Assembly: GCA_903937385.1 (NCBI GenBank) | Contig: CAIZZF010000008.1 | Location: forward strand, 1 to 64,000 | Origin: an uncultured Holophagaceae bacterium | GTDB lineage: Bacteria > Acidobacteriota > Holophagae > Holophagales > Holophagaceae | Direction of reading: 5' to 3' | DNA length: 64,000 bases | Part shown: positions 3,979-18,056 of the stretch, piece by piece | How the letters are laid out: each line of letters opens with the position of its first letter | Position numbering within the stretch: the first letter of the stretch is position 1 | Made by a program: the position numbers and the translations under genes | The notes under the pieces: model-generated | The model's database searches: none | The model's input: the letters and a program-made list of their open reading frames with translations, nothing else | What the model was told of the DNA's origin: nothing

Positions 3979-5013
3979 TCACCCCCAAAGCTCGTCCTGG
4001 TGCTTCTTCTGCTCCTCAGTTGAGGTCTCCTGGTACCGGAGGGTGGTCATGGCGTTCTGATGGCCCAGCATGGTTTGGACTTCCTTGAGCGGAGCCTTGT
4101 TGCGTAGGTGCAGGGTGGCGAAGGTGGCCCGCAGCCGGTGCATGCCCAATGCTGGAACACCAATAGCCTTGGCTCCACGCTTCAGAGCCTTATTGAGCCA
4201 ACCACGGCTATGAACCTTCCCTTTTTCGCCGGGGAAGATCAGGCCCGATTCCGGCCGGTGGACCGGAAGAGGTTCCTTCCTGGCCAGGGCCTGGTGAGTC
4301 AGCATCCAGCCCAGCGCCGTGTGGAGGATTGGAGGCGCGGCAATGACCCTGTGCTTCTTCCCTTTGGTGCGGCTACGGACATCGTATGCCTCTGTAGTCA
4401 GCCACTCCCAACGGGCGTTGAGCATCTCGGCCTCGCGGACGCCAAGCGTCATGGTAAAGGTCGCGGCAGCAGGGATTTGGGCATTCAGTCTGGTCAAGGC
4501 GGTGAAGAAGATTTCACGCTGGTCCTTTTCCACGATTGGCCGAGCCTTCTCTTCCTCCCTGAGCATCTTGACGGAGTAGGGCATCTCTTTGATCAGCTTG
4601 TCCTTCATAGCCCAACGGCAGAACAACTTGAGGTAGCGCATGGCCAGATTCACAGTTGCCGGGCTACGACCCTTCAGATAGTCCGAACGCCAGTCCTCGA
4701 CCCGTGCCGTGGTCACATGCGGGAGCGGCAGCTTGAGCAGTGGCTTCAAGACCTCGCGGCTCTTCTCAGCGGCAATCCGATGTTCATCGGAGACGGAGCG
4801 ACCACGGGTATCAAGCCACTTATCAATCACCGCTCCAAGAGTCGGGGCCACACGAATGCCGTGCCCTCCCAGAATGCAATCCTGGCGAACAATCTCCAGA
4901 ACCCGCTTGGCAGTCTCTAGGTCCCGAGCCTTGGTCGTGCCTGAGTGAAGAGCGCCATTGATCTCGAATCGGTAGTGATAAACCTTCCCGCGTTTGAAGA
5001 GCCACTGAGTCAT
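3979..5013 (-). CDS. int: tyrosine recombinase, island integrase
   Basis: A 344-residue phage-type integrase that should catalyse site-specific recombination between the two 47-bp att repeats. The N-terminal half has a SAM-like core-binding region; the catalytic half shows the first Arg in LGVREAE, H292-R-L-R295, H318 in MLGHQN and the nucleophile Y327 in TTLRYQ. Start ATG follows AGAGG and overlaps the upstream gene stop as ATGA. It is the last gene of a four-gene overlapping operon. It faces the OmpA gene tail to tail. The link to tRNA-Asn is inferred from its being the only tyrosine recombinase here. Confidence 0.9.
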   Translation of the reverse strand: MTQWLFKRGKVYHYRFEINGALHSGTTKARDLETAKRVLEIVRQDCILGGHGIRVAPTLGAVIDKWLDTRGRSVSDEHRIAAEKSREVLKPLLKLPLPHVTTARVEDWRSDYLKGRSPATVNLAMRYLKLFCRWAMKDKLIKEMPYSVKMLREEEKARPIVEKDQREIFFTALTRLNAQIPAAATFTMTLGVREAEMLNARWEWLTTEAYDVRSRTKGKKHRVIAAPPILHTALGWMLTHQALARKEPLPVHRPESGLIFPGEKGKVHSRGWLNKALKRGAKAIGVPALGMHRLRATFATLHLRNKAPLKEVQTMLGHQNAMTTLRYQETSTEEQKKHQDELWG

Positions 5014-5246
5014 GCAGACCTCTTTAGGCGGCGCTTGTAGACCCTATCCCTTACTTCCATGACGAGGGGATCAACTTGGTGAACGGCCTGAATCCACTCC
5101 ATTACCTTCGCCAAGATGAACTTTGGATTCTTCCAGCCCGGAACAATGGGGCATCCGGACCGGACCCATGCATGGATGGTTGTGCTGGAAACACAGATGT
5201 CATAGTCCCGAAGCTGCTGGATGAGCTTTTGCTGAGAGAGGATCAT
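5010..5246 (-). CDS. small HTH protein, excisionase-like
   Basis: A 78-residue basic protein directly upstream of the integrase, overlapping it by four bases (ATGA). The sequence LIQQLRDYDICVSSTTIHAWVRSGCP reads like a MerR/excisionase-type helix-turn-helix in which the second helix recognises DNA, followed by a Lys/Arg-rich tail. A GAGGAG site precedes the ATG. Position, size and charge suggest a recombination directionality factor; this is inference, and a plain transcriptional regulator is possible. Confidence 0.65.
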   Translation of the reverse strand: MILSQQKLIQQLRDYDICVSSTTIHAWVRSGCPIVPGWKNPKFILAKVMEWIQAVHQVDPLVMEVRDRVYKRRLKRSA

Positions 5247-5482
5247 CGCTGCTCCTCCAGCCCAGGAGTCAGATCCCCCTGCCCTTCAATTCGAGGGTTC
5301 ACAGGCTCAATGAGCAACGACTCGGAGTCGCAGGCAAGGCCAGGTGACGCGTTTAAGATTGGCTGGAAGTTCAAATTGCCTGATGCATCGTTGGCAATTA
5401 ACCCGATAGCCCTTTCAATTTCATGAATTACATCTTCTAAAGGATGTAAGCCGACTGCCCTTAACTTGCCCTTCCACTTCAT
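5243..5482 (-). CDS. unknown small protein in integrase operon
   Basis: A 79-residue protein of unknown function, from ATG 5482 (reading MKWKGKLRAVG). Its ATG overlaps the stop of the upstream gene (ATGA) and its own stop overlaps the ATG of the HTH gene the same way, which supports translation. An in-frame GTG at 5503 and ATG at 5494 are alternative starts. No motif recognised; the middle is acidic and helical (EDVIHEIERAIGLIAND). Confidence 0.55.
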   Translation of the reverse strand: MKWKGKLRAVGLHPLEDVIHEIERAIGLIANDASGNLNFQPILNASPGLACDSESLLIEPVNPRIEGQGDLTPGLEEQR

Positions 5483-5715
5483 GATGATTCCCATTGGGTC
5501 CACTCGGCGGCGGGACGATACCGGTTGTTCATGTGAGCTTTGCAGTTCAAGTGGCCCACGGCACCTTCAGGATTGATATACCGACCGCGCGACTCTTTTC
5601 TGCCAAAAATGTTCAGCTCGGCTGAATTTTCTCGCCAGGCGTTGCGGGTGCACATGTGCATCTGGACTGAGAGGCTTGGCCAAAACCGTAAAGCTGGTGA
5701 TCCAGGGCCAACCAA
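5479..5715 (-). CDS. unknown small protein, first in integrase operon
   Basis: Up to 78 residues; the stop overlaps the next gene as ATGA, continuing the coupling pattern of this operon. The start is uncertain: the open frame begins with a TTG at 5715 lacking a ribosome site, and internal ATGs (MHMCTRN) are no better. The C-terminal part is Arg/Asn/Trp-rich (RYRPAAEWTQWESS). No family recognised. Confidence 0.4.
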   Translation of the reverse strand: MVGPGSPALRFWPSLSVQMHMCTRNAWRENSAELNIFGRKESRGRYINPEGAVGHLNCKAHMNNRYRPAAEWTQWESS

Positions 5716-6117
5716 TAGAAAGAATTTCTAAAAACGGCCCCTCAAGACAGATTTGAGGCAGTTAATTTAACTTACCTTTTTCTCTTCCTGGCGAAGCCTA
5801 AGGAAGAAGATAAGAAAAAGGGAGGTACTTATACTATATAGAGTTTGTTTTGCTTTGCTTAGCTATGCTTCGCTTAGCTAAGCTTGGTTATGTTATGGGT
5901 GCAGTAAAATTCATATGTTACAAAGCTTTTTTACTTAAAGTGCTACAGCCACTTGGCAGGATATAAGTAAAAAATAAAGTAAAAAAATGAAATATCTTCG
6001 CAACCCTCTATTAGATCATGGGACCGAGTTTCCCATTCTGAGGAGAAAGAGCATGAAAAGAGTTATAACTAGGACCTTCGAAAAGGGACCTATTTGTCTA
6101 ACCGATGAGGTGATCCT
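5716..6117. promoter_or_regulatory. AT-rich divergent control region with repeats
   Basis: No convincing gene in 400 bp between the leftward integrase operon and rightward unknown genes. It contains a stem CTTCCT-GGC/GCC-AGGAAG (5784-5806), a tandem repeat of 15 bp, TGCTTYGCTTAGCTA twice (5851-5880, one mismatch), and a 12-bp palindrome GCTTAGCTAAGC at 5872-5883. Composition is AT-rich with long A/T runs at 5900-6000. Likely holds promoters for both sides and binding sites for the recombination proteins; that is inference. Confidence 0.5.
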
Positions 6118-6756
6118 ATGAAAAGCCTCTATATACAGGTACCAGTAGATGAACCTCTATGCTGGGAAAATAGGATGTCATACCAGGATTTTGGACTATT
6201 AACCAAGGCAAGATGCTTCGCATTCAAACTAGGCTCTATTCCATCTGATAAGTCATTATTTTGGACCATGATGGATCATGGATCACAAACCAAACAGGAC
6301 AGAAGTATAATAGATAAATACTTTTGCGATTTTGACGCTTTAGCCGAAGAGCATAAAGCTATTATTAAATCAGAATATCCCAAGTTGACAGACTATAAAG
6401 GCAGGTTATTTTGTCCCGATATTATTGAACAAGTTGGGAATCTAAAAATTTCCAAAGGTGATAATCCTGGATATAAAAAGGGTATGTCTAAAATCGACAG
6501 AGCGGGTGTCTTTGTAGATCAAATTACTAAAATCATTCGTGATAATCCGCAAACTTGTTTTATTGGAGAAATATCCCTTGAAAAGGTTATATCCATGCTT
6601 AATATATGGAATTGGGCCAAACTTATTCCAATAACAGAAAAAGCCGCTAAAACAAAACCTGAAATTAACCTAGATAATACTATTTTTAATATAGAGTGGT
6701 CGGAATCATTTCTTAAAAAAATTGGCCTATCCAAGAATGATAAAGATAAGAATTAA
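6118..6756 (+). CDS. unknown AT-rich island protein
   Basis: A 212-residue soluble protein from an AT-rich gene, composition clearly unlike the core genome and typical of recently acquired DNA. The ATG has GAGGTGA six bases upstream. No signal peptide or transmembrane segment and no motif I recognise; it is Lys/Ile-rich, with a segment KISKGDNPGYKKGMSKIDRAG in its middle. A second unknown gene follows 24 bp later, so the pair is probably an operon. Confidence 0.6.
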   Translation: MKSLYIQVPVDEPLCWENRMSYQDFGLLTKARCFAFKLGSIPSDKSLFWTMMDHGSQTKQDRSIIDKYFCDFDALAEEHKAIIKSEYPKLTDYKGRLFCPDIIEQVGNLKISKGDNPGYKKGMSKIDRAGVFVDQITKIIRDNPQTCFIGEISLEKVISMLNIWNWAKLIPITEKAAKTKPEINLDNTIFNIEWSESFLKKIGLSKNDKDKN

Positions 6757-6780
6757 TAACAACTTAAAATTGGAGATATT

Positions 6781-7176
6781 ATGACAATTAATACTACTTT
6801 ATTGCAAACAATCAATGAACTGAATTTTGAACCTGAAATAGATGATGCCAAAAAGGAATGGTTATCCTATCTCAATGATCAAACTAGCATAAAATTAAAA
6901 ATATATCAAAAACTTGCTCCATTACTTGAAAAAAATCTCATTAAAATTGCCAATAAAAACAAAAAATCAGGATTATTGGGTTATTACGGTTTTACTGATG
7001 ATGATTTAACAATAATTGACAATGAAAAGTATGGTTTTGATTTGTATTCTATTGAAACAATTCATTGGATTTGTCTGGCTACTGGTTGGGTAAAACAAAA
7101 CCATGAAATCACTGTTCCCCCAGGATGGCCTACCAGCTACATAGAAATTTGGGCGCCACCTAGTAGCAATTTATAA
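6781..7176 (+). CDS. unknown DDDL-motif protein, longer paralog
   Basis: A 131-residue AT-rich protein with GGAG five bases before its ATG, 24 bp after the previous gene. The core GYYGFTDDDLTIID followed about 25 residues later by IHWICLATGWVKQ resembles the convergent gene at 7261-7506 (GFLGFCDDDLMPLF, then KVCKHYGWKKR). No known family identified. No signal peptide. The shared motif and opposed arrangement suggest a paralogous pair. Confidence 0.6.
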   Translation: MTINTTLLQTINELNFEPEIDDAKKEWLSYLNDQTSIKLKIYQKLAPLLEKNLIKIANKNKKSGLLGYYGFTDDDLTIIDNEKYGFDLYSIETIHWICLATGWVKQNHEITVPPGWPTSYIEIWAPPSSNL

Positions 7177-7206
7177 AAATTATTGATTAATTAATTTAAA
7201 AAATCA

Positions 7207-7255
7207 AATTCCCAACATAAATCTACGGATTTGATTATCATGTTGGGAATTTTTG
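7207..7255. terminator. bidirectional terminator between convergent genes
   Basis: Perfect 12-bp stem AATTCCCAACAT (7207-7218) with ATGTTGGGAATT (7240-7251), followed by a T tract on plus; the minus side also runs into T-rich sequence. The loop holds a small inner hairpin. It separates the convergent DDDL-motif genes. Confidence 0.75.
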
Positions 7256-7260
7256 AATGA

Positions 7261-7506
7261 TTACTTGCGCCAGGCATATGTTCTAAGGCCACCAAACATT
7301 ATTTGGCGTTTTTTCCATCCATAATGTTTACAAACCTTCTGAATTAATGCTGACGAGTAGGCCCTGAAGAGAGGCATTAGGTCGTCATCACAGAACCCTA
7401 AAAATCCAATAGATTCTTGATTAATTATAGCAATACGATTAAGATTTTGCTCAATTTCCGGGAAAATTTTACCAATTTCCTTGAGAGATGAAAGATTGCA
7501 TTGCAT
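7261..7506 (-). CDS. unknown DDDL-motif protein, short paralog
   Basis: An 81-residue AT-rich gene with AGGAG seven bases before its ATG. It matches the C-terminal two thirds of the convergent protein at 6781-7176: G-x-x-G-F-x-DDDL, then a conserved Cys and GWxK. The C-terminus is basic (KHYGWKKRQ). Function unknown; the acidic DDDL cluster could bind metal, but nothing else supports that. Confidence 0.6.
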   Translation of the reverse strand: MQCNLSSLKEIGKIFPEIEQNLNRIAIINQESIGFLGFCDDDLMPLFRAYSSALIQKVCKHYGWKKRQIMFGGLRTYAWRK

Positions 7507-7734
7507 CTAATTCTCCTATATAAAATCGCAGCGATGACTGCTTACCAATAGATGTGGTTAGTTTCTTTTTAATTTATTTATTATATTATTTTGATAAATA
7601 CTTCCCAAGGTTCTCATTTACCGATTATTGCTGCATGGTGGAATCAGCAATAATCCTTAAATTCCCAGGTAAGAAATCAGCATTGGCTCGGTATAACAGT
7701 CCATGGAGGCACTTCCGCCTCCCCCCGGAGACCC

Positions 7735-9810
7735 ATGCCACGCCCTTACAGCGTTCCCCTCAGCCGGTTTCTTGGCCTGAAGCAGAGGGAAGAGCGGAAA
7801 CAGGAGCGGGAGCCCTCCCAACCCTTCAACCCGGCACCAAAGCCTGAAGGTTCGTACAAACGCCCTTCGCGTCGTCCCAAGGATGGACCGAGCCCGATCC
7901 GGCTCAGGCAGAGTGAATTGGATGGCTTCACCGCCGACCTGATCTCATGGGTGGTTGGTGGTTGCCAGCAGTTGGCCTGGGAAGCTCTGATCAGCCGGAA
8001 GGATGAATCGGGTGCTCCTACCTGGTTGAAGGCTGAAGCTCTGGGCCTGGACTCGCTCAGCCATAAAATTCTGGGCCTCGCCTTGGCTCATTTGGTGCAC
8101 CTCCAAGGTGGCCTGGAGGATTCGCCATTCCAGCCAGGACAGGACCTTGATGGCGGCTGCCTGATTCAATTTTTGAACCTCCAGTCGCCAAATGGCCTAT
8201 GGGAATTGGCCACATGCCTGGCGACAGACGCTCCGCTCCGTGCCCGTGGCTTCCTGGAGGTGGACCGCGAGTGGAGCCCCCACCAGAAACGGAAAGGCTC
8301 GAATCCCATCAGCGTGGCCCGGTTCCTCAAAACCGAAATTTCGCTCAATTTGCAATGCCTTGGTGCTTTGCTTGGGCTCGACAAGATAGAAACTGAGGAT
8401 CTCGGTCCATCTCTGGAGGACTTGGCCCTCCCTCATGCCGTCCGTTCCCAGCTGGAACGCCTGCTGAAAAACCCTCCTCAACTCGATCGCCCCTTCCTGG
8501 TCTACCTCAAAGGGGCTGAGCAGAGTGGTCGTCACTCTCTCGCCCGATCCTTGGCAAAGCACTTCCACCTTCCTCTCAAGAGCATCCGCCCAAGCGATGG
8601 CCCTCAGCCAGGGGCCTTCGCCATTGCCGAAATACCCTCTCACTTCGATTCTCAGGATTTTCAGCTACTCAAAGAGCATCCCTCCTGGCTCTTCCTCAAG
8701 CCGATAGAGAGAGACATGTCATTCGATCCCGAATCCCGGGCCGATCTGGTGCTAGACCTCGGCCCCCTCTCCACGGAGGAACGAACCGATCTCTGGAGCC
8801 GGCTGTTGAAGGAGGCGGGTCCTGGCTTTACTGAAGTAGAGACCAAAGAGTTGGTAACCCTTGAAACCCCTCCGGGACGCATCGTAGAGGCAGTGAAACG
8901 GTTGTCACGCAACTCTGCCTGGGAGGAACTTAGTCCTCAGTCGGTTGTGGAGCATCTGAAGGTCGCTCTCGTACCCAATAAGCCCAAGGCTTCCGAGACC
9001 ACCTACGCCGAGAAGCTGAAACCCATCCGTTGCCTGGATGAGCTATGCCTATCGCCTGAGGCCATGACCCGCTACAAGCGGATCATCCAAACCATCCGTG
9101 GTCGGAAAGAAATGCTAACCAATTGGAAGCTCGATCCAGGTCTGGTGGGCCGCGCACAGGGCGTCATGCTCTTCCATGGTCCCAGCGGCACTGGAAAAAC
9201 GATGGCTGCCGAGGTCCTGGCCCATGAGTTGGAATTGCCTCTGCTGCGTATGGAGGCCGCTGAGATCGAATCCCCTTATGTCGGCGAATCAGAATCTCGC
9301 CTGCAACAGTTCTTCGCCAGCGTGAAGGGAAAACCTGCCGTCCTGCTCCTCGACGAGGTCGATACGGTTCTCATGAATCGCAGCACCACGACAGGTAGCA
9401 CCAAGCGGTATCAGGACAACTTCGTGAATACCTTCCTTCGGGAACTCGATCGTTTCGAAGGCATCCTGGTCCTCACCTCGAACCACCCTGGTTCATTGGA
9501 CCCCGCCGTGGAGCGTCGGATTCAGTTCCGGTTGGTTTTCGAGTCTCCTTCAGCCGAGGTCCGGGCTCAGATATGGAAGACCCTCCTGGGAGACGCACCC
9601 ATTCCAGGTCGTGAATCCCTGGATTTCAGCACAGTGGCTGCTCTCTATGACCTCAGCGGTGGTCGAATCCGCAATGCCTTTATGGACGCCTGCCAACGAG
9701 CTGCCGAGACCGGTGCCATCAGCCAGGAAATTCTTATCGACGCCTGTGAGGAGGAGCAACGGTCATCCATCACCAAGACCTTACGCACCATCAAGGGTTT
9801 CGGGGCCTAA
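7735..9810 (+). CDS. two-module AAA+ ATPase
   Basis: A 691-residue ATPase. The C-terminal module is a classic AAA domain: Walker A GPSGTGKT at about residues 482-489, Walker B VLLLDEVD near 536-543, sensor-1 LTSNHPGSLDPA and arginines at VERRIQFR. The N-terminal module keeps only a degenerate P-loop (KGAEQSGRHSLA near 260) and is probably non-hydrolysing. The first 65 residues are Pro/Arg-rich and likely disordered. The layout recalls CDC48/Vps4-like remodelling ATPases, but no protease or known adaptor is alongside. GGAG precedes the ATG. First gene of a same-strand set of unknowns ending in a metallophosphoesterase. Confidence 0.85.
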   Translation: MPRPYSVPLSRFLGLKQREERKQEREPSQPFNPAPKPEGSYKRPSRRPKDGPSPIRLRQSELDGFTADLISWVVGGCQQLAWEALISRKDESGAPTWLKAEALGLDSLSHKILGLALAHLVHLQGGLEDSPFQPGQDLDGGCLIQFLNLQSPNGLWELATCLATDAPLRARGFLEVDREWSPHQKRKGSNPISVARFLKTEISLNLQCLGALLGLDKIETEDLGPSLEDLALPHAVRSQLERLLKNPPQLDRPFLVYLKGAEQSGRHSLARSLAKHFHLPLKSIRPSDGPQPGAFAIAEIPSHFDSQDFQLLKEHPSWLFLKPIERDMSFDPESRADLVLDLGPLSTEERTDLWSRLLKEAGPGFTEVETKELVTLETPPGRIVEAVKRLSRNSAWEELSPQSVVEHLKVALVPNKPKASETTYAEKLKPIRCLDELCLSPEAMTRYKRIIQTIRGRKEMLTNWKLDPGLVGRAQGVMLFHGPSGTGKTMAAEVLAHELELPLLRMEAAEIESPYVGESESRLQQFFASVKGKPAVLLLDEVDTVLMNRSTTTGSTKRYQDNFVNTFLRELDRFEGILVLTSNHPGSLDPAVERRIQFRLVFESPSAEVRAQIWKTLLGDAPIPGRESLDFSTVAALYDLSGGRIRNAFMDACQRAAETGAISQEILIDACEEEQRSSITKTLRTIKGFGA

Positions 9811-9866
9811 GTCATTGATCACACCACTCAAATCGCCGTATCCCCAGCTCGTACACCAGGAGAACC

Positions 9867-10628
9867 ATGCTTCCTATTCTCAAACACCTCACTCGGACCA
9901 CACCCACCTGGCTCAAGGACATCAGCCCATCTGATATTCAGCAGGGTCCCGGTTCGTGGATGAATTACCTCGTAGAAGACGCATTGGTCTATTTCGGTGC
10001 GGGTCTCGATTTTTCACCCGTGAGGCAATGCAACGGAGCCGTAAGTTCCTTTATATTATTTGATTACGGGACAATCCAAACCGATGTCGTTGCAGAGCTG
10101 AATCGGCAGATGAAGACCGGTGTGGTATTCAAGGCTCACCGGCTCATTGCCCTAGCAGCATTCGATCCTCTCCCTCTGGTGATTGACGCTGATCCTGATT
10201 TCATCTATCGAGGCCAGCTTTTCCATCAGACGCAACCTCCCTTCGGAATCTGGGCGGTATACGAGAGCAAAGCAGACCCAACCGAACGATTCAGCTTCAT
10301 GTACATGGGTGTTGAAGCGATACAGGCCCTCGCCGCATTGTTTCCAAACTCTGCTCCCAAGGCACTTGTGGTTCAAGAACATGGTTTTGGAGGATCATGC
10401 TGGCAGAATTTTAGTGACCAAATTCTGAGGCTCTCAAAGTGGTGGGCCACCCTTCCAGAGATCCTAATCCTTGGCAAACACCACAGCCTTCAAGCCTGGA
10501 GTAGAAATGCTCAACACCTCGGCTCAGATAAAGCGATTGAAAGCATGCATGGAAATCAGCGTGAGTTTTTTTGGATGAACCAAGCCGGACGCGATAGTTC
10601 ACGGAAACCCGATGACCCAAGATCGTGA
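9867..10628 (+). CDS. conserved-looking hypothetical protein
   Basis: A 253-residue soluble protein, 56 bp after the AAA+ gene, with AGGAG four bases before the ATG. It reads like a compact globular domain: LVYFGAGLDFSPVR, FILFDYG, PFGIWAVYES, ERFSFMYMGVEAIQAL and EHGFGGSCWQNF. I do not recognise a named family. No signal peptide or membrane segment. Close spacing suggests it acts with the ATPase, perhaps as partner or substrate adaptor; that is inference. Confidence 0.65.
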   Translation: MLPILKHLTRTTPTWLKDISPSDIQQGPGSWMNYLVEDALVYFGAGLDFSPVRQCNGAVSSFILFDYGTIQTDVVAELNRQMKTGVVFKAHRLIALAAFDPLPLVIDADPDFIYRGQLFHQTQPPFGIWAVYESKADPTERFSFMYMGVEAIQALAALFPNSAPKALVVQEHGFGGSCWQNFSDQILRLSKWWATLPEILILGKHHSLQAWSRNAQHLGSDKAIESMHGNQREFFWMNQAGRDSSRKPDDPRS

Positions 10629-10981
10629 ATACACCCAGCACAGAGATGGAATGGACATCAAACGCCAGAACCTGTTTCTAGGCATTCTTACTTCCTTGAG
10701 AATCACATGAGTTTTGATAAACCCTACATTAGAGGCAAAGAACATCGGAAACCCTACAGGGGTGCAAAAATGTCTTTCGCCTCTTGCCGGAATCATGGGT
10801 CTTGTAGGTGCTGCGTTCGTGGTCGTCAGCATGCTACAGAGCGTAGGAAGCCGATACAGGAGGTACATGAACAATGCATGAAAGATCCTGATGCAGTCAT
10901 GAAGGAACGGAGTGTATCTGCACTACAGGCGTAGAGAATCAGAGAACGACGACAACTATCCACACTTAGAATTGGACCATT
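10629..10981. other. 353-bp gap with no convincing gene
   Basis: Between two same-strand unknown genes. It holds only short competing frames in the plus direction (one Cys/Arg-rich frame at 10707-10934 and a short hydrophobic frame noted separately). No repeat or terminator is obvious. It may be a degraded gene. Confidence 0.4.
10762..10881 (+). CDS. possible small membrane peptide
   Basis: A 39-codon frame from GTG 10762 encoding one hydrophobic span (LAGIMGLVGAAFVVVSML) followed by a basic tail (SRYRRYMNN), which is the layout of a small inner-membrane peptide. It can also begin at TTG 10714. No good ribosome site is seen, so evidence rests on the protein pattern alone. Confidence 0.25.
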   Translation: MQKCLSPLAGIMGLVGAAFVVVSMLQSVGSRYRRYMNNA

Positions 10982-11464
10982 GTGCGTGAAGGCTGTTGGA
11001 TTCGCTCCTCGGGGGAATGGACCTGGATCAACGAACATGCCTCATGGGTTCAGAAACCAGAGAACGCGAGGTTGCTGGGACTTCCGGAAGAGATTCAGGC
11101 CCAGCTTTTTGACCTCCGGTGGGACTTCAATGGAGTCGGGAGAGAGGCCATTCTCCGCGTAGCCATGGGTGCTGGGTTAATCCGAATGAGAGGCCATGGA
11201 GCAAATGTAACTTTTGAATTCACCATTCCAATGGCGATTGCGATTCAATCAGTCAGACCCTTCATGGACCAGAATTTCGGCCCGATGACCTGGGTCCAGT
11301 TCAACGACCTGGAGAAGGGTCAGTCCTTCGGATGCTGCTACAAGGATCTGAGCGAAGCCATGGACAAGGGGACTCTCTCAGACCTGTTGGCTGAGGCCAG
11401 TGATTCGGCAGTGGAGGGTCCGTCCACTCATCCTGGAACGCCCAGGGAGGAAGGGAAATTTTGA
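10982..11464 (+). CDS. unknown protein coupled to phosphoesterase
   Basis: A 160-residue soluble protein starting at GTG 10982 (reading MREGCWIRSSGEW). Its TGA overlaps the TTG of the next gene, so the two are translationally coupled. Features: an aromatic N-terminus, then LRWDFNGVGREAILRVAMGAGLIRMRGHG, followed by beta-rich FEFTIPMAIAI and a charged tail. I do not recognise the family. Coupling suggests it regulates or partners the metallophosphoesterase. Confidence 0.6.
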   Translation: MREGCWIRSSGEWTWINEHASWVQKPENARLLGLPEEIQAQLFDLRWDFNGVGREAILRVAMGAGLIRMRGHGANVTFEFTIPMAIAIQSVRPFMDQNFGPMTWVQFNDLEKGQSFGCCYKDLSEAMDKGTLSDLLAEASDSAVEGPSTHPGTPREEGKF

Positions 11465-12153
11465 GGATCCTGGCCTTCTCTGACCTGCATGGGAGTGGAT
11501 TTTTGGCGGCTTCCGCTCTGATTGATAGGCATCAGCCCAACTGGGTCATTTGCGTCGGCGATTTACTCCCTGATTTCACTCAGCGCCCAGCAAAATTCCG
11601 CCTCTTGGCCCAACAGAAATTTTGGCGTGACCATCGACACCTATTCGTCCGGCCTGAGTCCGTAACCACCATGATCGTGGGGAACCATGAGCTGCCTGGG
11701 TTCAAGTTTCCAGGCATGGACCTCCTCCCGGCAGGTTTCGAGGACCGTGTTGTGAGGCTTGAAGGAGTTCCTGGCGACTCTGGACCATACAGTTTCGCCA
11801 ACGGTCTGCCTGAGGAAGAACTCGAAGAGGAACTTCAGGACCAACTCACCCTTGTTTCGAATCCCCTAATCTACCTGAGCCATGCACCACCCTACGGGAG
11901 CTGTGACAAGTCACATCGAGGGGATCACATTGGCCATCGCCCACTCTTTCGGCATCTCCAAGATCGTGACTGGCCAAGGGTATTGGTTCTATGCGGCCAT
12001 GTGCACAACGGCTTTGGAGTCGAGGAAGCTGGAGCCACCACCATTCTGAATGTTGCCACCGGGTACGCAATCCTCGAATGGGAGAAGGACTTTACCCGTG
12101 TCCTAGAGATTGGACGCTTGGTGGCGGGGGGGAGTTTCTGGGACTCCCCCTAG
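11461..12153 (+). CDS. calcineurin-like metallophosphoesterase
   Basis: A 230-residue phosphoesterase of the binuclear-metal superfamily. All motifs are visible: D8-L-H10, GD34, GNHE with N75/H76, H141 in SHAPP and GHVH with H180 and H182. Likely substrates are phosphodiesters such as nucleotides or nucleic acids; specificity cannot be read. It starts at TTG 11461, overlapping the stop of the previous unknown gene. No signal peptide, so cytoplasmic. Last gene of the set begun by the AAA+ ATPase; a GGGGGAGT/ACTCCCCC hairpin lies at its very end (12128-12150). Confidence 0.85.
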   Translation: MRILAFSDLHGSGFLAASALIDRHQPNWVICVGDLLPDFTQRPAKFRLLAQQKFWRDHRHLFVRPESVTTMIVGNHELPGFKFPGMDLLPAGFEDRVVRLEGVPGDSGPYSFANGLPEEELEEELQDQLTLVSNPLIYLSHAPPYGSCDKSHRGDHIGHRPLFRHLQDRDWPRVLVLCGHVHNGFGVEEAGATTILNVATGYAILEWEKDFTRVLEIGRLVAGGSFWDSP

Positions 12154-12297
12154 GCTGGTAGTCGTACCCCGGTTTCTCTAACCACCATCGAGGATCTATT
12201 GGGACTTCCATGGTGCAAGGGCCTGTAACTGGTGGTAGCCTCTTGTCATATTCCAATGCCTGACGATAGGTTTGTGTTAAATCTCTAAGGAGAAAAA

Positions 12298-13290
12298 ATG
12301 AAAACAGGATTGCTGTTAATTTCCAGCCTTATGATCCTGGTTGCTTGTGATTCTCAAACGAAGAAGGACATCAAGAATAGAATTAATAATAACGATGTCA
12401 CTGGTGTAATCAAAATTGTAGAAGAACAGATACTTATCCCTAAGACTTCTGGAAACGATGAGGCGAATAGGAATCTCCTAGCCCTAGCAGTTGATTTTGT
12501 ATCCAAAAACAAATCAATCAATCAATTCAAATCCGTTATTGATCACTACATGGTAAATCCTACAAGTTATAACGAAGAATCCATGTCCAGATTAGCCTTG
12601 TTACTCGCCAATAATGGGTTCTATGATTATTCATTAATGAAAAAATTATATTTTGCATCAAAAATAGACAAAAATTCTTCAAAGGCCCTAGAACCAATTG
12701 TTAAAAATATAAAAATTGAAGACCTTTTAAAAGATATGAAAGAGCAATCAGAAAATTTTAAAATTAAAGCCATGAAAGGTGAAAATTTTCAAGATATAGT
12801 AGATAATTATGCCTTAATCTCCAATTTAGCCTCCTCCGTTAATAACGGTGGAGCTATCTACCAAGAATTTGATCAGATAGTTATTCAAATTGCCAAAGCT
12901 CTCCCCGCTGAATCGGTTTATGGCATTACAGTCGATAATCGCAATGAATACAATGGGTTCATTCAGAAGGTCGGGTTAAACTTTGGAGTTTCTAGGCAGA
13001 TATTAATTTTGATGGACGAATTGAATACGATTGCTAGAAATATTGAAAACAAAAAATCGGAATACGATGATGCGGTCAAACGGTTACACAACATCACTTC
13101 CGGAAAGAGAGACCAGACAATTAGAGAAATTGCTGCATATAGTCAACAATTAGGAAATATGTTTTATGCAAGTGCACCACGCGAATTAGATGAAGCTAAA
13201 GAAGAGGTTGCCGAAATCGCAAAAGAAATCTCAGGTTTGAAAAAGAAATTTAATGAAACCAAGGCCAAGATTGCTGACTTATTAAAGTGA
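12298..13290 (+). CDS. AT-rich island lipoprotein
   Basis: A 330-residue predicted lipoprotein. The signal (LLLISSLMILVAC) has a canonical lipobox LVAC with Asp next, a residue that in enterobacteria favours inner-membrane retention. The body is helical, with a long C-terminal coiled coil rich in Lys/Glu (from about residue 245 to the end). AAGGAG precedes the ATG. Strong AT bias marks it as foreign relative to the core. No functional domain recognised. Confidence 0.65.
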   Translation: MKTGLLLISSLMILVACDSQTKKDIKNRINNNDVTGVIKIVEEQILIPKTSGNDEANRNLLALAVDFVSKNKSINQFKSVIDHYMVNPTSYNEESMSRLALLLANNGFYDYSLMKKLYFASKIDKNSSKALEPIVKNIKIEDLLKDMKEQSENFKIKAMKGENFQDIVDNYALISNLASSVNNGGAIYQEFDQIVIQIAKALPAESVYGITVDNRNEYNGFIQKVGLNFGVSRQILILMDELNTIARNIENKKSEYDDAVKRLHNITSGKRDQTIREIAAYSQQLGNMFYASAPRELDEAKEEVAEIAKEISGLKKKFNETKAKIADLLK

Positions 13291-13357
13291 TGTGACAATT
13301 TTTATATTATGGAATGAAAAATCCAATAGCAAAGCCCTAGTTAAAGGGGGTTTAGCC

Positions 13358-13552
13358 ATGCAAGACATGAACATTCCAGAACAACCACTAATCAAAATTC
13401 GCCCGAGAACCGACCAGGCACCTGATTTAGTAAAGGTAGAAGAAAATATTGAACCCCCAACTATTCATTTCGCACCTGGCAGAGAAAACCGAGGGATGTT
13501 TGATTTCAGGGCAAAGCTGCTTCTAGAACAGCAAGTGGACGGGTCTATCTAG
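13358..13552 (+). CDS. small unknown protein after lipoprotein
   Basis: A 64-residue protein from ATG 13358, which has GGGGG seven bases upstream; an in-frame GTG at 13292 directly after the lipoprotein stop is an alternative. Pro/Glu-rich and probably disordered (IPEQPLIKIRPR, NIEPPTIHFAPG). No family. It is kept because of codon spacing, ribosome site and continuity with the preceding gene. Confidence 0.4.
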   Translation: MQDMNIPEQPLIKIRPRTDQAPDLVKVEENIEPPTIHFAPGRENRGMFDFRAKLLLEQQVDGSI

Positions 13553-13568
13553 TGCTCACCGTTCAACC

Positions 13569-15692
13569 TCAGTTGGGGAGTCTGTAAGAAATTCGCAAGA
13601 ATTCCCAAATTTGACCAATTATTGTTTCTTCCAGGAGGGTATCCCAATCCATTTCTGTACTAGTCGAACGCCTAACATCACCAGTCACCGGGTCGATATC
13701 TTTGATGGTTCCGAATTTCCATAGTAAACCGTTATTACTGCCAGAAATGGATACCTCCCGTATTTGGACAGATGGCGACGAGTACTGGTAATCTGCCCAC
13801 AATCCCCAAACCGTATATCTAAGATTGTCCCGAGTGAGGCTGTCACCATCGATGTATACCACCTGCTTTCGGTCATTACTAACTGTGGCTAGTTTCCACC
13901 GTTTGCCTAAAGTTTGAATCTCGCGTTGTACCTTTCCTGTTTTATTGTGTGCGAGGCGGGATAGGGCTTGAAGTTCCGGGTTGGATGCGGCTGCTATTAG
14001 CTTCAAGTTCTCAATTGCTTGGACATGCCCTTGATCTGCCGCCTTCTTGTACCAAATCATTGCCTGTGTAGTGTCTCTTTTAATTCCCTTCCCGTGATAA
14101 TAAGAGTTGCCCACTTCATTTTGTGAATGAGCATCCCCTTGTTCTGCGGCTTTTCGATACCACATCAAAGCTTCCAGAGGGGCCTTCTTAGTGCCTCGAC
14201 CAAATGCATAGCAGTTACCAAGGGCTGTTTGTGCTGCGGCAAGGCCTTGGTCTGCAGCTTTTCGATACCAGTCAATAGCTACTTTGAGATCCCTTGAACT
14301 CCATTCTCCATTTTCATAAGTCTGCCCAATTAGGTACTCAGCAAAGTGCTCCCCCTGCGTTGCAGCCTTTTTGAGCCAATTTATGGCCTCGGGAAAGTTC
14401 TGTTTTACACCCCTTCCCTCCGCGTAGCAGCCGGCGAGTCGAATTTGAGCTTTCACATTCCCTTGCTCTGCAGCTTTCAGAAACCATTTAGCGGCCTCGC
14501 TGTGACTCTGTGCAACTCCGTTTCCGTCAAAATACCCGCAGCCCAAATTGAATTGGGCTAGGTCGACACCTTGTTCTGCTGCCTTCTGATAATTCAGCAT
14601 TGCGAGGGAATGGTCTTGAGACACACCCTGACCTAAAAAATATTTATTCCCAAGATTTACTTGAGCAGCCTTATCCCCCTGATCCGCTGCCTTTTTGTAA
14701 TACTTCACAGCCTCTACATAATTCTTCGGAATGCCAATTCCTTCGTCGTATAGCCAACCCAGCCGAAACTGAGCTTCAGCAGAACCGGATTCCGCCCATT
14801 TCAGTGCCCATTTAAATGATAGTGTTAAATCCTTAGTTACCCCTATCCCTTGGAAATAGAAAAAGAAGGCCATGTTACTCATTGCAGTCTCGTTACCATT
14901 CTCTGCAGCCATTAGGGTCCAACGGGCTGCTTCAGGCAGGTCTTTAGTGACAATTTTTCCTTTGAAGTACTCGGAACCAAGTTTTTCTTGAGACTCTGCA
15001 TGCCCTTGATCTGCTGCTCTCTTCCAAAGATTGATTGCCATTTCGGTATCTCTTGGAACGCCTTCCCCAGCTAAATACCGATTCGCAAGCCTGTATTGAG
15101 CATTTGCATCTCCCTGATCCACGGCTCTTTGATACCAAATTGACGCTTCAGTAAAATTGACACCAACGCCCTGGCCGAACTGATACATAACACCGAGGCT
15201 TGTCTGGGCAGTCGAATCACCATTTTCAGCTAAGGTTTTATACTTATTTAGTGCCTTTCGATAAAATTCTATGGCTAAGAGTGCATTTTTTGTTACTCCC
15301 GTCCCTTCCTCGTAAGAATTGGCTAGGTATCGGTACCCATCTGGGTCCTCCTTGTCAACAGATAGACGGATCAATCTAATACCTTCTGCCTCGTCTTTTG
15401 CCACTCCCTTGCCGCTCAGATATAAGTCTCCAAGGTGTGCCATGCTCGGGGCAAAGCCCTTTTCTGCGGCCTTCCTGAACCACTTTGCGGCTTCTTGAGC
15501 ATTCGCTTGAATTCCCATTCCATCTCGATAACGAATTCCAAGAGCATCCTGCCCAATTGGGTTCCCGTTCTCTGCAAATGCACGGAGGCTTACTAAGTCT
15601 CTTGGTATTGATTGATTCGACATGGAGTCGTTCATTTTCGATTGACCAATGAGCGGCATAGCCACTAAGAGAAGACCTGTCAGATATCGCAT
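13569..15692 (-). CDS. exported Sel1-repeat protein with adhesin-E-like end
   Basis: A 707-residue exported protein. After a signal peptide (YLTGLLLVAMPLIG) come about 14 Sel1-like repeats of roughly 36 residues each, with the typical G-x-G-V and A-x-x-W-x-x-K-A-A-x-Q-G pattern, forming a superhelical protein-binding scaffold. The last 110 residues (from RWKLATVSNDRKQVVYID) resemble the surface-adhesin E domain. GGAG lies six bases before the ATG. Sel1 proteins commonly mediate envelope or host-contact interactions; the partner is unknown. Lies in the island, tail to tail with the small unknown gene. Confidence 0.8.
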   Translation of the reverse strand: MRYLTGLLLVAMPLIGQSKMNDSMSNQSIPRDLVSLRAFAENGNPIGQDALGIRYRDGMGIQANAQEAAKWFRKAAEKGFAPSMAHLGDLYLSGKGVAKDEAEGIRLIRLSVDKEDPDGYRYLANSYEEGTGVTKNALLAIEFYRKALNKYKTLAENGDSTAQTSLGVMYQFGQGVGVNFTEASIWYQRAVDQGDANAQYRLANRYLAGEGVPRDTEMAINLWKRAADQGHAESQEKLGSEYFKGKIVTKDLPEAARWTLMAAENGNETAMSNMAFFFYFQGIGVTKDLTLSFKWALKWAESGSAEAQFRLGWLYDEGIGIPKNYVEAVKYYKKAADQGDKAAQVNLGNKYFLGQGVSQDHSLAMLNYQKAAEQGVDLAQFNLGCGYFDGNGVAQSHSEAAKWFLKAAEQGNVKAQIRLAGCYAEGRGVKQNFPEAINWLKKAATQGEHFAEYLIGQTYENGEWSSRDLKVAIDWYRKAADQGLAAAQTALGNCYAFGRGTKKAPLEALMWYRKAAEQGDAHSQNEVGNSYYHGKGIKRDTTQAMIWYKKAADQGHVQAIENLKLIAAASNPELQALSRLAHNKTGKVQREIQTLGKRWKLATVSNDRKQVVYIDGDSLTRDNLRYTVWGLWADYQYSSPSVQIREVSISGSNNGLLWKFGTIKDIDPVTGDVRRSTSTEMDWDTLLEETIIGQIWEFLRISYRLPN

Positions 15693-16002
15693 TCATGTCT
15701 CCTACTGCAATATTTCTTAGGCTTGCTCAACCAACCCTATTGACTAAATAATTGTTAACTTTTGTTAAGGTGACCACCGTCACTGCTTTCAAGCCTCCGG
15801 TGTTGTCCTTCGTAGCTACAACCAGAGGTGGACCCTCCAAATCGCCTTGCCCTCCTTGGCTAGTAGAGTTCCAAAACCCCCTCCTCCGACCAGTGTTTTC
15901 ATTTCAAAAATTTTCTATGGGTTTTTAAATATTACCACCCAGTTATACAGATCACCAAATAGGCGGTCTGGTGACAATTCCCGATGCCTCGGATGGCTGG
16001 AG
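15693..16002. other. 310-bp intergenic stretch
   Basis: Upstream of the Sel1 gene and downstream of the recombinase. It shows AT-rich patches (TTGTTAACTTTTGTTAAGG near 15745) but no supported gene, repeat or terminator. Confidence 0.5.
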
Positions 16003-16560
16003 CTAAGTTCTTGCTGTCGCTGGAACCCAACGATACAGCGTAGGAATTGACACACCCAGATTCTTGGCCACCTCTTTTGGAAGAGCCCCGGAGGAGAGAA
16101 GCTGTTTGGCTGCTTCGATCTTTCCAGCGTCCATCTTCCGCTTTCGACCACCGATCTTCCCGAGGCGGCGAGCGGCCTGAAGGCCAGCCTGGGTGCGCTC
16201 AACCACAAGCTCGCGTTCCATTTGGGCTAGGCTAGCCATCACATGGAAGAAGAACCGTCCAGCCGGTGTTGAGGTGTCGATCTGATCTGTGAGGCTGGCG
16301 AAGTGGATTTCCTCCTTTGCCAGGTCCGTCACGAAATCGACCAGGCCCTTCACAGACCGACCAAGCCGGTCCAGCTTCCAGACCACAAGGGTGTCTCCCG
16401 CCCTCAGGTGCGACTTCGCCTCTTGGAGCCCAGGCCGATCTGAACGAGCACCGGACATTCGATCGGTGAAGATCCGCTCACAACCGGCTAGCTCAAGGGC
16501 TTGAGTCTGAAGGTCCAGGGATTGGAGGTCAGTTGAAACACGCGCATAACCAAGTCGCAG
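16003..16560 (-). CDS. serine recombinase (resolvase/invertase), CTG start
   Basis: A 185-residue serine recombinase. The frame upstream of the first ATG (16458) is open and encodes the complete N-terminus LGYARVSTDLQSLDLQ with the catalytic Ser at residue 9, so the true start is CTG 16560, with AAGGAG five bases before it. No ATG, GTG or TTG is available in frame before the upstream TAG. The rest is typical: WKLDRLGRSVKGL, AGRFFFHVMASLAQMERE, and a C-terminal Hin-like HTH ending in SIPTLYRW. Sits beside an inverted repeat that overlaps its promoter. Confidence 0.85.
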   Translation of the reverse strand: MRLGYARVSTDLQSLDLQTQALELAGCERIFTDRMSGARSDRPGLQEAKSHLRAGDTLVVWKLDRLGRSVKGLVDFVTDLAKEEIHFASLTDQIDTSTPAGRFFFHVMASLAQMERELVVERTQAGLQAARRLGKIGGRKRKMDAGKIEAAKQLLSSGALPKEVAKNLGVSIPTLYRWVPATART

Positions 16561-16566
16561 ATCGGC

Positions 16567-16607
16567 TCCTTCTCGATACTCATTATTATACTAGGAATCG
16601 AGAAGGA
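16567..16607 (-). promoter_or_regulatory. inverted repeat over recombinase promoter
   Basis: Perfect 11-bp inverted repeat (16567-16577 with 16597-16607, arms TCCTTCTCGAT) round a 19-bp spacer that contains TATAAT on the minus strand. The inner arm carries the AAGGAG ribosome site of the serine recombinase. It could be the operator and crossover site of that enzyme, allowing autoregulation. Confidence 0.5.
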
Positions 16608-16766
16608 TCATTCCAGAATAGTTTTCGAGAACCCAAAGGGCCTGATTTTGCGTGAAGGCAATCCGATGGACGGTGCCTTCTTGATAACCACCGTTACCAA
16701 GAGGGCCACTATCCAAAGTTTTTTGAGCCTCGGGAGCAGATCCAAGGCCATTGCCAATCGACCGGA

Positions 16767-17980: not shown

Positions 17981-18027
17981 TGGCTCCGGAGGAGGGATTT
18001 GAACCCCCGACCTAGTGATTAACAGTC
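17981..18027 (-). repeat. right att repeat inside tRNA-Asn
   Basis: Perfect copy of 95-141. It spans from the anticodon loop to the CCA end, a classical target for tyrosine integrases that insert in tRNA genes. Confidence 0.9.
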
Positions 18028-18056
18028 ACCCGCTCTGACCCCTGAGCTACTCCGGA
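17981..18056 (-). tRNA. tRNA-Asn (anticodon GTT)
   Basis: 76 nt including encoded CCA. Acceptor TCCGGAG pairs with CTCCGGA with discriminator G; anticodon stem GGTGA/TCACT encloses CTGTTAA; T arm GGGGG-TTCAAAT-CCCTC. Its last 47 nt are the right att repeat, so the 3' part came with the island while the gene stays intact. Confidence 0.97.

What the first reader, a model, noticed from the sequence alone, without database searches (positions are those of the whole stretch)
7735..12153. AAA+ ATPase, two unknown proteins and a metallophosphoesterase: candidate undescribed island system
Four same-strand genes between foreign AT-rich blocks: a two-module AAA+ protein with one dead P-loop, a conserved-looking unknown 56 bp later, and an unknown translationally coupled to an intact cytoplasmic phosphoesterase. 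ATPase plus nuclease/phosphatase cargo in an island is a common layout for defence or stress modules, but I recognise no known one.
Basis: inference. Interest (0 to 1): 0.65.

Follow-up and report, generated by a model that had tools for sequence, protein, structure and literature searches.

The report
Orphan injection-machine-type ATPase in mobile element
Four neighbouring genes on a small mobile DNA element of a Holophagaceae bacterium form a unit kept together by evolution, built around an ATPase of the type that loads bacterial injection machines but with no such machine nearby and a phosphate-cutting enzyme instead; what the unit does is untested.

Summary
Four same-strand genes (7735-12153) lie in a ~12.7 kb integrative element (about 3981-16696) with a tyrosine integrase at one end and a serine resolvase at the other. 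One other Holophagaceae genome, among 297 searched in the phylum, carries the same four genes in the same order in an element with the same recombinase ends but mostly different other cargo, so the four behave as a unit. dN/dS is 0.15-0.23 in the three genes where it could be computed.

Main new result: the AAA+ protein has the architecture of Pvc15/Afp15, the effector-loading ATPase of extracellular contractile injection systems (eCIS), down to K-to-R in the dead D1 P-loop, yet no eCIS gene is nearby. The phosphoesterase keeps all metal motifs; its only solved-structure match is MPPED2. The 160-aa unknown belongs to a family whose four other intact loci all lie near restriction-modification genes. 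The 253-aa unknown stays unidentified. The sister element adds a gene with two aspartyl-protease-like DTG motifs after the ATPase.

Most likely an island conflict (probably anti-phage) module: AAA+ remodeller, two sensor or adaptor proteins, phosphodiesterase effector. Anatomy shown; function inferred. Only two copies are known.

The parts
3981..16696 (.). Integrative element that carries the set; ends placed where DNA identity to the sister element stops
   Evidence: 88-90% DNA identity of both ends to G260 (L021 5640-18560), divergence outside
3979..5013 (-). Tyrosine integrase, 344 aa, at the left edge of the element
   Evidence: Pfam Phage_integrase 1.9e-17; 95% aa identity to the G260 copy
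7735..9810 (+). AAA+ ATPase, 691 aa, Pvc15/Afp15-type: N domain, dead D1, active D2
8512..8535 (+). Dead Walker A of D1 (GAEQSGRH, K replaced by R; also R in the sister copy)
   Evidence: Alignment of D1 motifs
9178..9201 (+). Intact Walker A of D2 (GPSGTGKT); Walker B LLLDE follows at about 9343-9357
   Evidence: Pfam AAA 1.1e-28
9867..10628 (+). 253-aa protein of unknown family
   Evidence: No hit in Pfam, NCBIfam, PADLOC, PHROGs; 54-56% identical homologue in G260 only
10982..11464 (+). 160-aa protein; equals the N-terminal domain of ~310-aa proteins found near restriction-modification genes
   Evidence: model pLDDT 85.7 without clear fold match
11461..12153 (+). Calcineurin-like metallophosphoesterase, 230 aa, all metal motifs present, nearest solved relative MPPED2
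16003..16458 (-). Serine resolvase/invertase near the right edge of the element
   Evidence: Pfam Resolvase 6.1e-32; 97% aa identity to the G260 copy

Best explanation
A cargo module of an integrative element, most likely a conflict (probably anti-phage) module. SHOWN: a divergent Pvc15/Afp15-type AAA+ (N domain, dead D1, active D2 with an aromatic pore loop), two small unknown proteins and a metallophosphoesterase are kept together on a mobile element with no injection-system structural gene nearby. INFERRED: the AAA+ forms a ring whose D2 pulls on a bound protein. Where Pvc15 hands signal-peptide-tagged payloads to an injection tube, this one would unfold, release or activate one of its own partner proteins. 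The 253-aa and 160-aa proteins would be sensor and adaptor. When triggered, the phosphoesterase acts as effector on a nucleotide or nucleic-acid phosphodiester bond. The protease-like gene of the sister element would add cleavage to the remodelling step.
For: Unit: four genes in the same order in a second element whose other cargo is mostly different, and rough dN/dS of 0.15-0.23. ATPase type: N domain plus dead D1 aligns with eCIS ATPases at hhalign P 9.1e-7, score 56.8 against at most 19.8 in 20 column shuffles; same K-to-R in D1 and D2 as sole ATPase in published Pvc15 (PMC11495950); closest relatives sit in eCIS clusters. Effector: intact phosphoesterase motifs, PDC-S10 5e-13. Conflict setting: integrase/resolvase element, patchy distribution, restriction genes at the four other intact loci of the 160-aa family.
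Against: Only two copies are known, and both are in elements with the same recombinases, so common descent of one element could keep unrelated genes together. No functional data. The 253-aa protein has no family or usable model. Restriction genes are near relatives of the 160-aa protein, not near this set. The IetA and PDC-S10 hits are partial and could reflect general AAA and phosphoesterase folds.
Confidence: 0.38

Rival explanations
1. The set serves the element itself: an addiction or maintenance module, with one protein (for instance the phosphoesterase) harmful unless held in check by the others.
For: Carried on an integrative element with its own recombinases and conserved together with them.
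Against: Large for an addiction module; no known toxin or antitoxin family in the set.
Confidence: 0.17
2. A stress, repair or nucleotide-processing module: the ATPase remodels a cellular complex and the phosphoesterase processes nucleotides or nucleic-acid ends, without a role in conflict.
For: AAA+ and calcineurin-like enzymes are common in repair and turnover; a weak NCBIfam hit to the DNA-damage endonuclease PdeM (E 2.2e-4, far below its cut-off).
Against: Patchy, element-borne distribution; no repair gene is linked.
Confidence: 0.15
3. Unrelated cargo that happens to travel in one block; no joint function.
For: Only one independent comparison; the 353-bp gap between genes 2 and 3 here and the extra gene in the sister show that the block is not rigid. 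The 160-aa domain also occurs without the other three.
Against: Same order and strand kept over near-saturating synonymous divergence while most other cargo changed.
Confidence: 0.2
4. The ATPase is a loader acting in trans for an injection system elsewhere in the genome, with neighbouring proteins as payload.
For: Pvc15-type architecture and motifs.
Against: No eCIS gene in the window or around the sister locus; no second ATPase of this type in the genome, where eCIS loci usually carry their own. In the D2 tree the pair lies outside the sampled eCIS ATPases. The rest of the genome was not searched for sheath genes.
Confidence: 0.06

Closest known systems
Pvc15/Afp15 AAA+ ATPase of extracellular contractile injection systems
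   Same: Length (691 against 698 aa), N domain plus tandem AAA, dead D1 with K to R in Walker A, D2 as the only ATPase, aromatic pore loop
   Different: No sheath, tube or baseplate genes nearby; long separate branch; partners are a phosphoesterase and two unknown proteins
IetAS anti-phage system (AAA ATPase plus subtilisin-like protease)
   Same: IetA is the closest named family to D2 (PADLOC 5.8e-32, NCBIfam 7.5e-30); the sister element has a protease-like gene after the ATPase
   Different: Two AAA modules; far below the NCBIfam cut-off (104 against 510 bits); no subtilisin; the window copy lacks the protease-like gene
MPPED2-type calcineurin-like phosphodiesterase
   Same: Only solved-structure match of the phosphoesterase profile (E 2.3e-4, residues 124-201)
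   Different: Bacterial, element-borne; substrate unknown
Double-AAA plus DUF7663 pair (own genome contig C10; G068, G030)
   Same: Two-module AAA protein beside a 260-290 aa protein; the 253-aa protein shares a Y-x-x-A-G-x-D-F-like stretch by eye
   Different: Intact P-loops in the C10 protein; N+D1 does not align (P 0.24); the 253-aa protein against DUF7663 is not significant (P 0.29)

Membership tests
Pvc15-type AAA+ ATPase | N domain and degenerate D1 homologous to the family | tested here: met
   hhalign P 9.1e-7 on N+D1 alone, shuffles far lower
Pvc15-type AAA+ ATPase | D2 with intact Walker A, Walker B and arginine fingers; D1 Walker A Lys replaced | tested here: met
   Motif alignment; published description
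Pvc15-type AAA+ ATPase | Lies inside the clade of eCIS ATPases | tested here: inconclusive
   D2 tree puts the pair beside, not inside, the 16 sampled eCIS ATPases; fork 92/89, long branches
Extracellular contractile injection system | Sheath, tube, baseplate or eCIS_core genes in the locus | tested here: not met
   tblastn of eCIS proteins against the window and the G260 locus: only the AAA matches; positive control works
IetAS | IetA above its curated cut-off | tested here: not met
   104.3 against 510 bits
IetAS | Subtilisin-like partner protease | tested here: not met
   None among the window proteins tested; the protease-like gene of the sister element is of another type by motif
Calcineurin-like metallophosphoesterase | Metal-binding motifs and domain match | tested here: met
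   PF00149 1.1e-12, all motifs present
DUF7663 (for the 253-aa protein) | Significant profile match | tested here: inconclusive
   No Pfam hit; hhalign P 0.29 with shallow profiles
CBASS with TRIP13-like ATPase | Nucleotidyltransferase and HORMA partners | tested here: not met
   No such hit among the seven window proteins scanned; the TRIP13 hit is a general AAA match
Anti-phage defence system | Protects cells against phage | not testable with these tools
   Needs a phage challenge in a laboratory strain

The most novel reading that the evidence does not exclude
A new anti-phage system in which an injection-machine-type (Pvc15-like) AAA+ protein, detached from any injection system, controls a metallophosphoesterase effector through two previously unknown partner proteins, with a variant that adds a protease.
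Probability: 0.27. Interest if true: 0.75.

Novelty: new variant of a known kind. Interest (0 to 1): 0.48.

Why it matters
Pvc15-type ATPases are known as effector loaders of contractile injection systems. A copy kept by a mobile element without such a machine suggests that this remodeller also works elsewhere, and it gives two unknown protein families a testable partner. If the set blocks phage, it is a new defence architecture; if not, it still marks an orphan branch of the loader family.

Tried and rejected
AlphaFold of the 253-aa protein from two sequences failed (pLDDT 35), so no fold search was run with it. The 160-aa model is good (pLDDT 86) but PDB comparison gave only weak rows (best VIA Z 4.7 with rmsd 3.1 over 68 residues; Foldseek E 0.17), so nothing is drawn from them. 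DUF7663 identity of the 253-aa protein came from an eye-read motif; the profile test is not significant. No relatives of the 253-aa protein, the 160-aa protein or the phosphoesterase were found in the plasmid, phage or viral-contig collections tried for each. A genome-contig scan with the ATPase found nothing, and one with the 253-aa protein found only the G260 locus. Insertion into the tRNA-Asn was tested: no repeat of the tRNA end near the integrase. The 353-bp gap is single copy in the genome, so not a known inserted repeat. Promoter and terminator scans gave no more sites than shuffles. The first D2 tree had a wrong-frame outgroup; one rerun stopped on a label error and the final tree is. 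Protease identity of the sister's extra gene rests on motifs; no Pfam or PDB sequence match.

Full report
What is there. GC is 62-73% in the host core, 49-57% in the block, and 31-35% in the AT-rich stretches on either side. The genes lie in an integrative element, marked by DNA identity to a second locus: the left end with a tyrosine integrase (3979-5013) and the right end with a serine resolvase (16003-16458) are 88-90% identical to their counterparts in G260, and identity stops at about 3981 and 16696. G260 is a metagenome-assembled genome of the same GTDB genus; its contig is titled 'uncultured Holophagaceae bacterium' (CAIWKE010000011.1). A tRNA-Asn lies at 17981-18056 but its end is not repeated near the integrase.

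Is it a unit? Of 297 phylum genomes including the window's own, only the window's genome and G260 have the 253-aa protein, a close relative of the phosphoesterase and a full-length relative of the ATPase. In G260 the genes are in the same order and strand. Protein identity is 66% (ATPase), 54% (253 aa), 56-58% (160 aa) and 69% (phosphoesterase). dN/dS is 0.15 for the ATPase, 0.23 for the 160-aa gene and 0.15 for the phosphoesterase; it could not be computed for the 253-aa gene. Synonymous divergence is near saturation, so these values are rough, but they point to selection on the proteins. Apart from the recombinase ends and one small ORF (13292-13552), no other cargo is detectably shared. The recombinase genes show lower synonymous divergence (0.5-0.64) than the set (1.5 or more), so ends and cargo may have partly separate histories. 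The caveat is that this is one comparison.

The ATPase. Pfam sees only the second AAA module. The closest relatives in the phylum are mostly two-module ATPases in contractile injection clusters: sheath genes near L043, L087, L088, L089, L092 and L093, and eCIS_core near L045 and L091. On plasmids, top hits lie beside genes annotated as contractile injection tape measure, Pvc16 family or DUF4255, or near DUF4157 genes. A profile of the window protein and its sister aligns with this group over the full length. The test that matters uses only the N domain and dead D1: hhalign P 9.1e-7, score 56.8 against a maximum of 19.8 in 20 column-shuffled controls, while the N+D1 of another double-AAA protein of the same genome does not match (P 0.24). 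D1 has K-to-R in Walker A and no Walker B acid pair; D2 has GTGK, DE, arginine fingers and an aromatic pore loop. Published Pvc15 has the same layout, the same K-to-R change in D1 and D2 as sole ATPase; it interacts with effector signal peptides and is needed for payload loading (PMC11495950). In the D2 tree the window pair is a long branch outside the 16 sampled injection-system ATPases (fork 92/89). So this is a divergent relative with the same architecture; whether it derives from a loader or both share an older ancestor is open. No injection-system gene was found in the window or around the sister locus, and the genome has no second ATPase of this type.

The phosphoesterase. It keeps DLH, GD, GNHE, SH and GHVH. 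Among solved structures its profile matches only MPPED2 (2.3e-4). PADLOC's candidate PDC-S10 matches at 5.1e-13. The substrate is unknown.

The unknowns. The 160-aa protein equals the N-terminal domain of ~310-aa proteins whose C-terminal part has zinc-ribbon-like CxxC pairs. Its four other intact loci in the genus lie near type I or type IIG restriction-modification genes, at about 0.2, 0.26, 3.7 and 4.2 kb, while N6_Mtase genes number only 1-3 per genome. Its predicted fold has no clear match. The 253-aa protein has no detectable family and its model is unusable. A resemblance to DUF7663, which sits beside another double-AAA protein in the same genome, did not pass a profile test with shallow alignments.

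The sister's extra gene. In G260 a 238-aa gene overlaps the ATPase stop by four bases and precedes the 253-aa gene. It has two DTG motifs, each followed further on by an LGxDL stretch, as in two-lobed aspartic proteases; this is motif evidence only. The window has 56 bp there instead. An ATPase next to a protease recalls IetAS, and IetA is the closest named family by D2, but the window protein scores far below that family's cut-off and has no subtilisin partner.

How it most likely works. Shown: the anatomy above. Inferred: the AAA+ remodels or releases a partner protein; the two small proteins sense or adapt; the phosphoesterase acts. The mobile setting, patchy distribution and restriction linkage of one family favour a conflict role. 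I give 0.38 to this reading; unrelated cargo (0.2), element maintenance (0.17) and a stress or repair role (0.15) remain real rivals. Nothing here measures function.

Noticed in passing
L022 2274-5260 (own genome contig C10, about 94.3-97.3 kb): A double-AAA protein with both P-loops intact is followed by a DUF7663 protein; DUF7663 and a related double-AAA protein are also neighbours in G068 and G030. No paper in the library names DUF7663.
   Followed up: partly
L022 10492-19735 (own genome contig C10): A second copy of the 160-aa family next to a resolvase, 3.7 kb from type I restriction genes and PDC-M30-like candidate defence genes. The tool reports one TGA inside the match.
   Followed up: partly
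L021 10668-11384 (G260): 238-aa gene with two DTG motifs between the ATPase and the 253-aa gene; absent from the window copy.
   Followed up: partly
L021 7480-8304 (G260): HNH-type protein matching PADLOC PDC-M68A and CBASS endonuclease effector models, same strand, about 370 bp downstream of the phosphoesterase in the sister element.
   Followed up: no
G260 C11 267638-267970 (L056): A second, partial copy of the integrase region, 85% identical, 2-4 kb beyond the element: remains of a tandem or earlier insertion.
   Followed up: no
window 6118-7506: AT-rich cargo with two unknown ORFs on the plus strand and one on the minus strand; no family hits for the two tested.
   Followed up: no
window 13569-15692: 707-aa protein of Sel1-like repeats, cargo of this element and not found in the sister element.
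   Followed up: no
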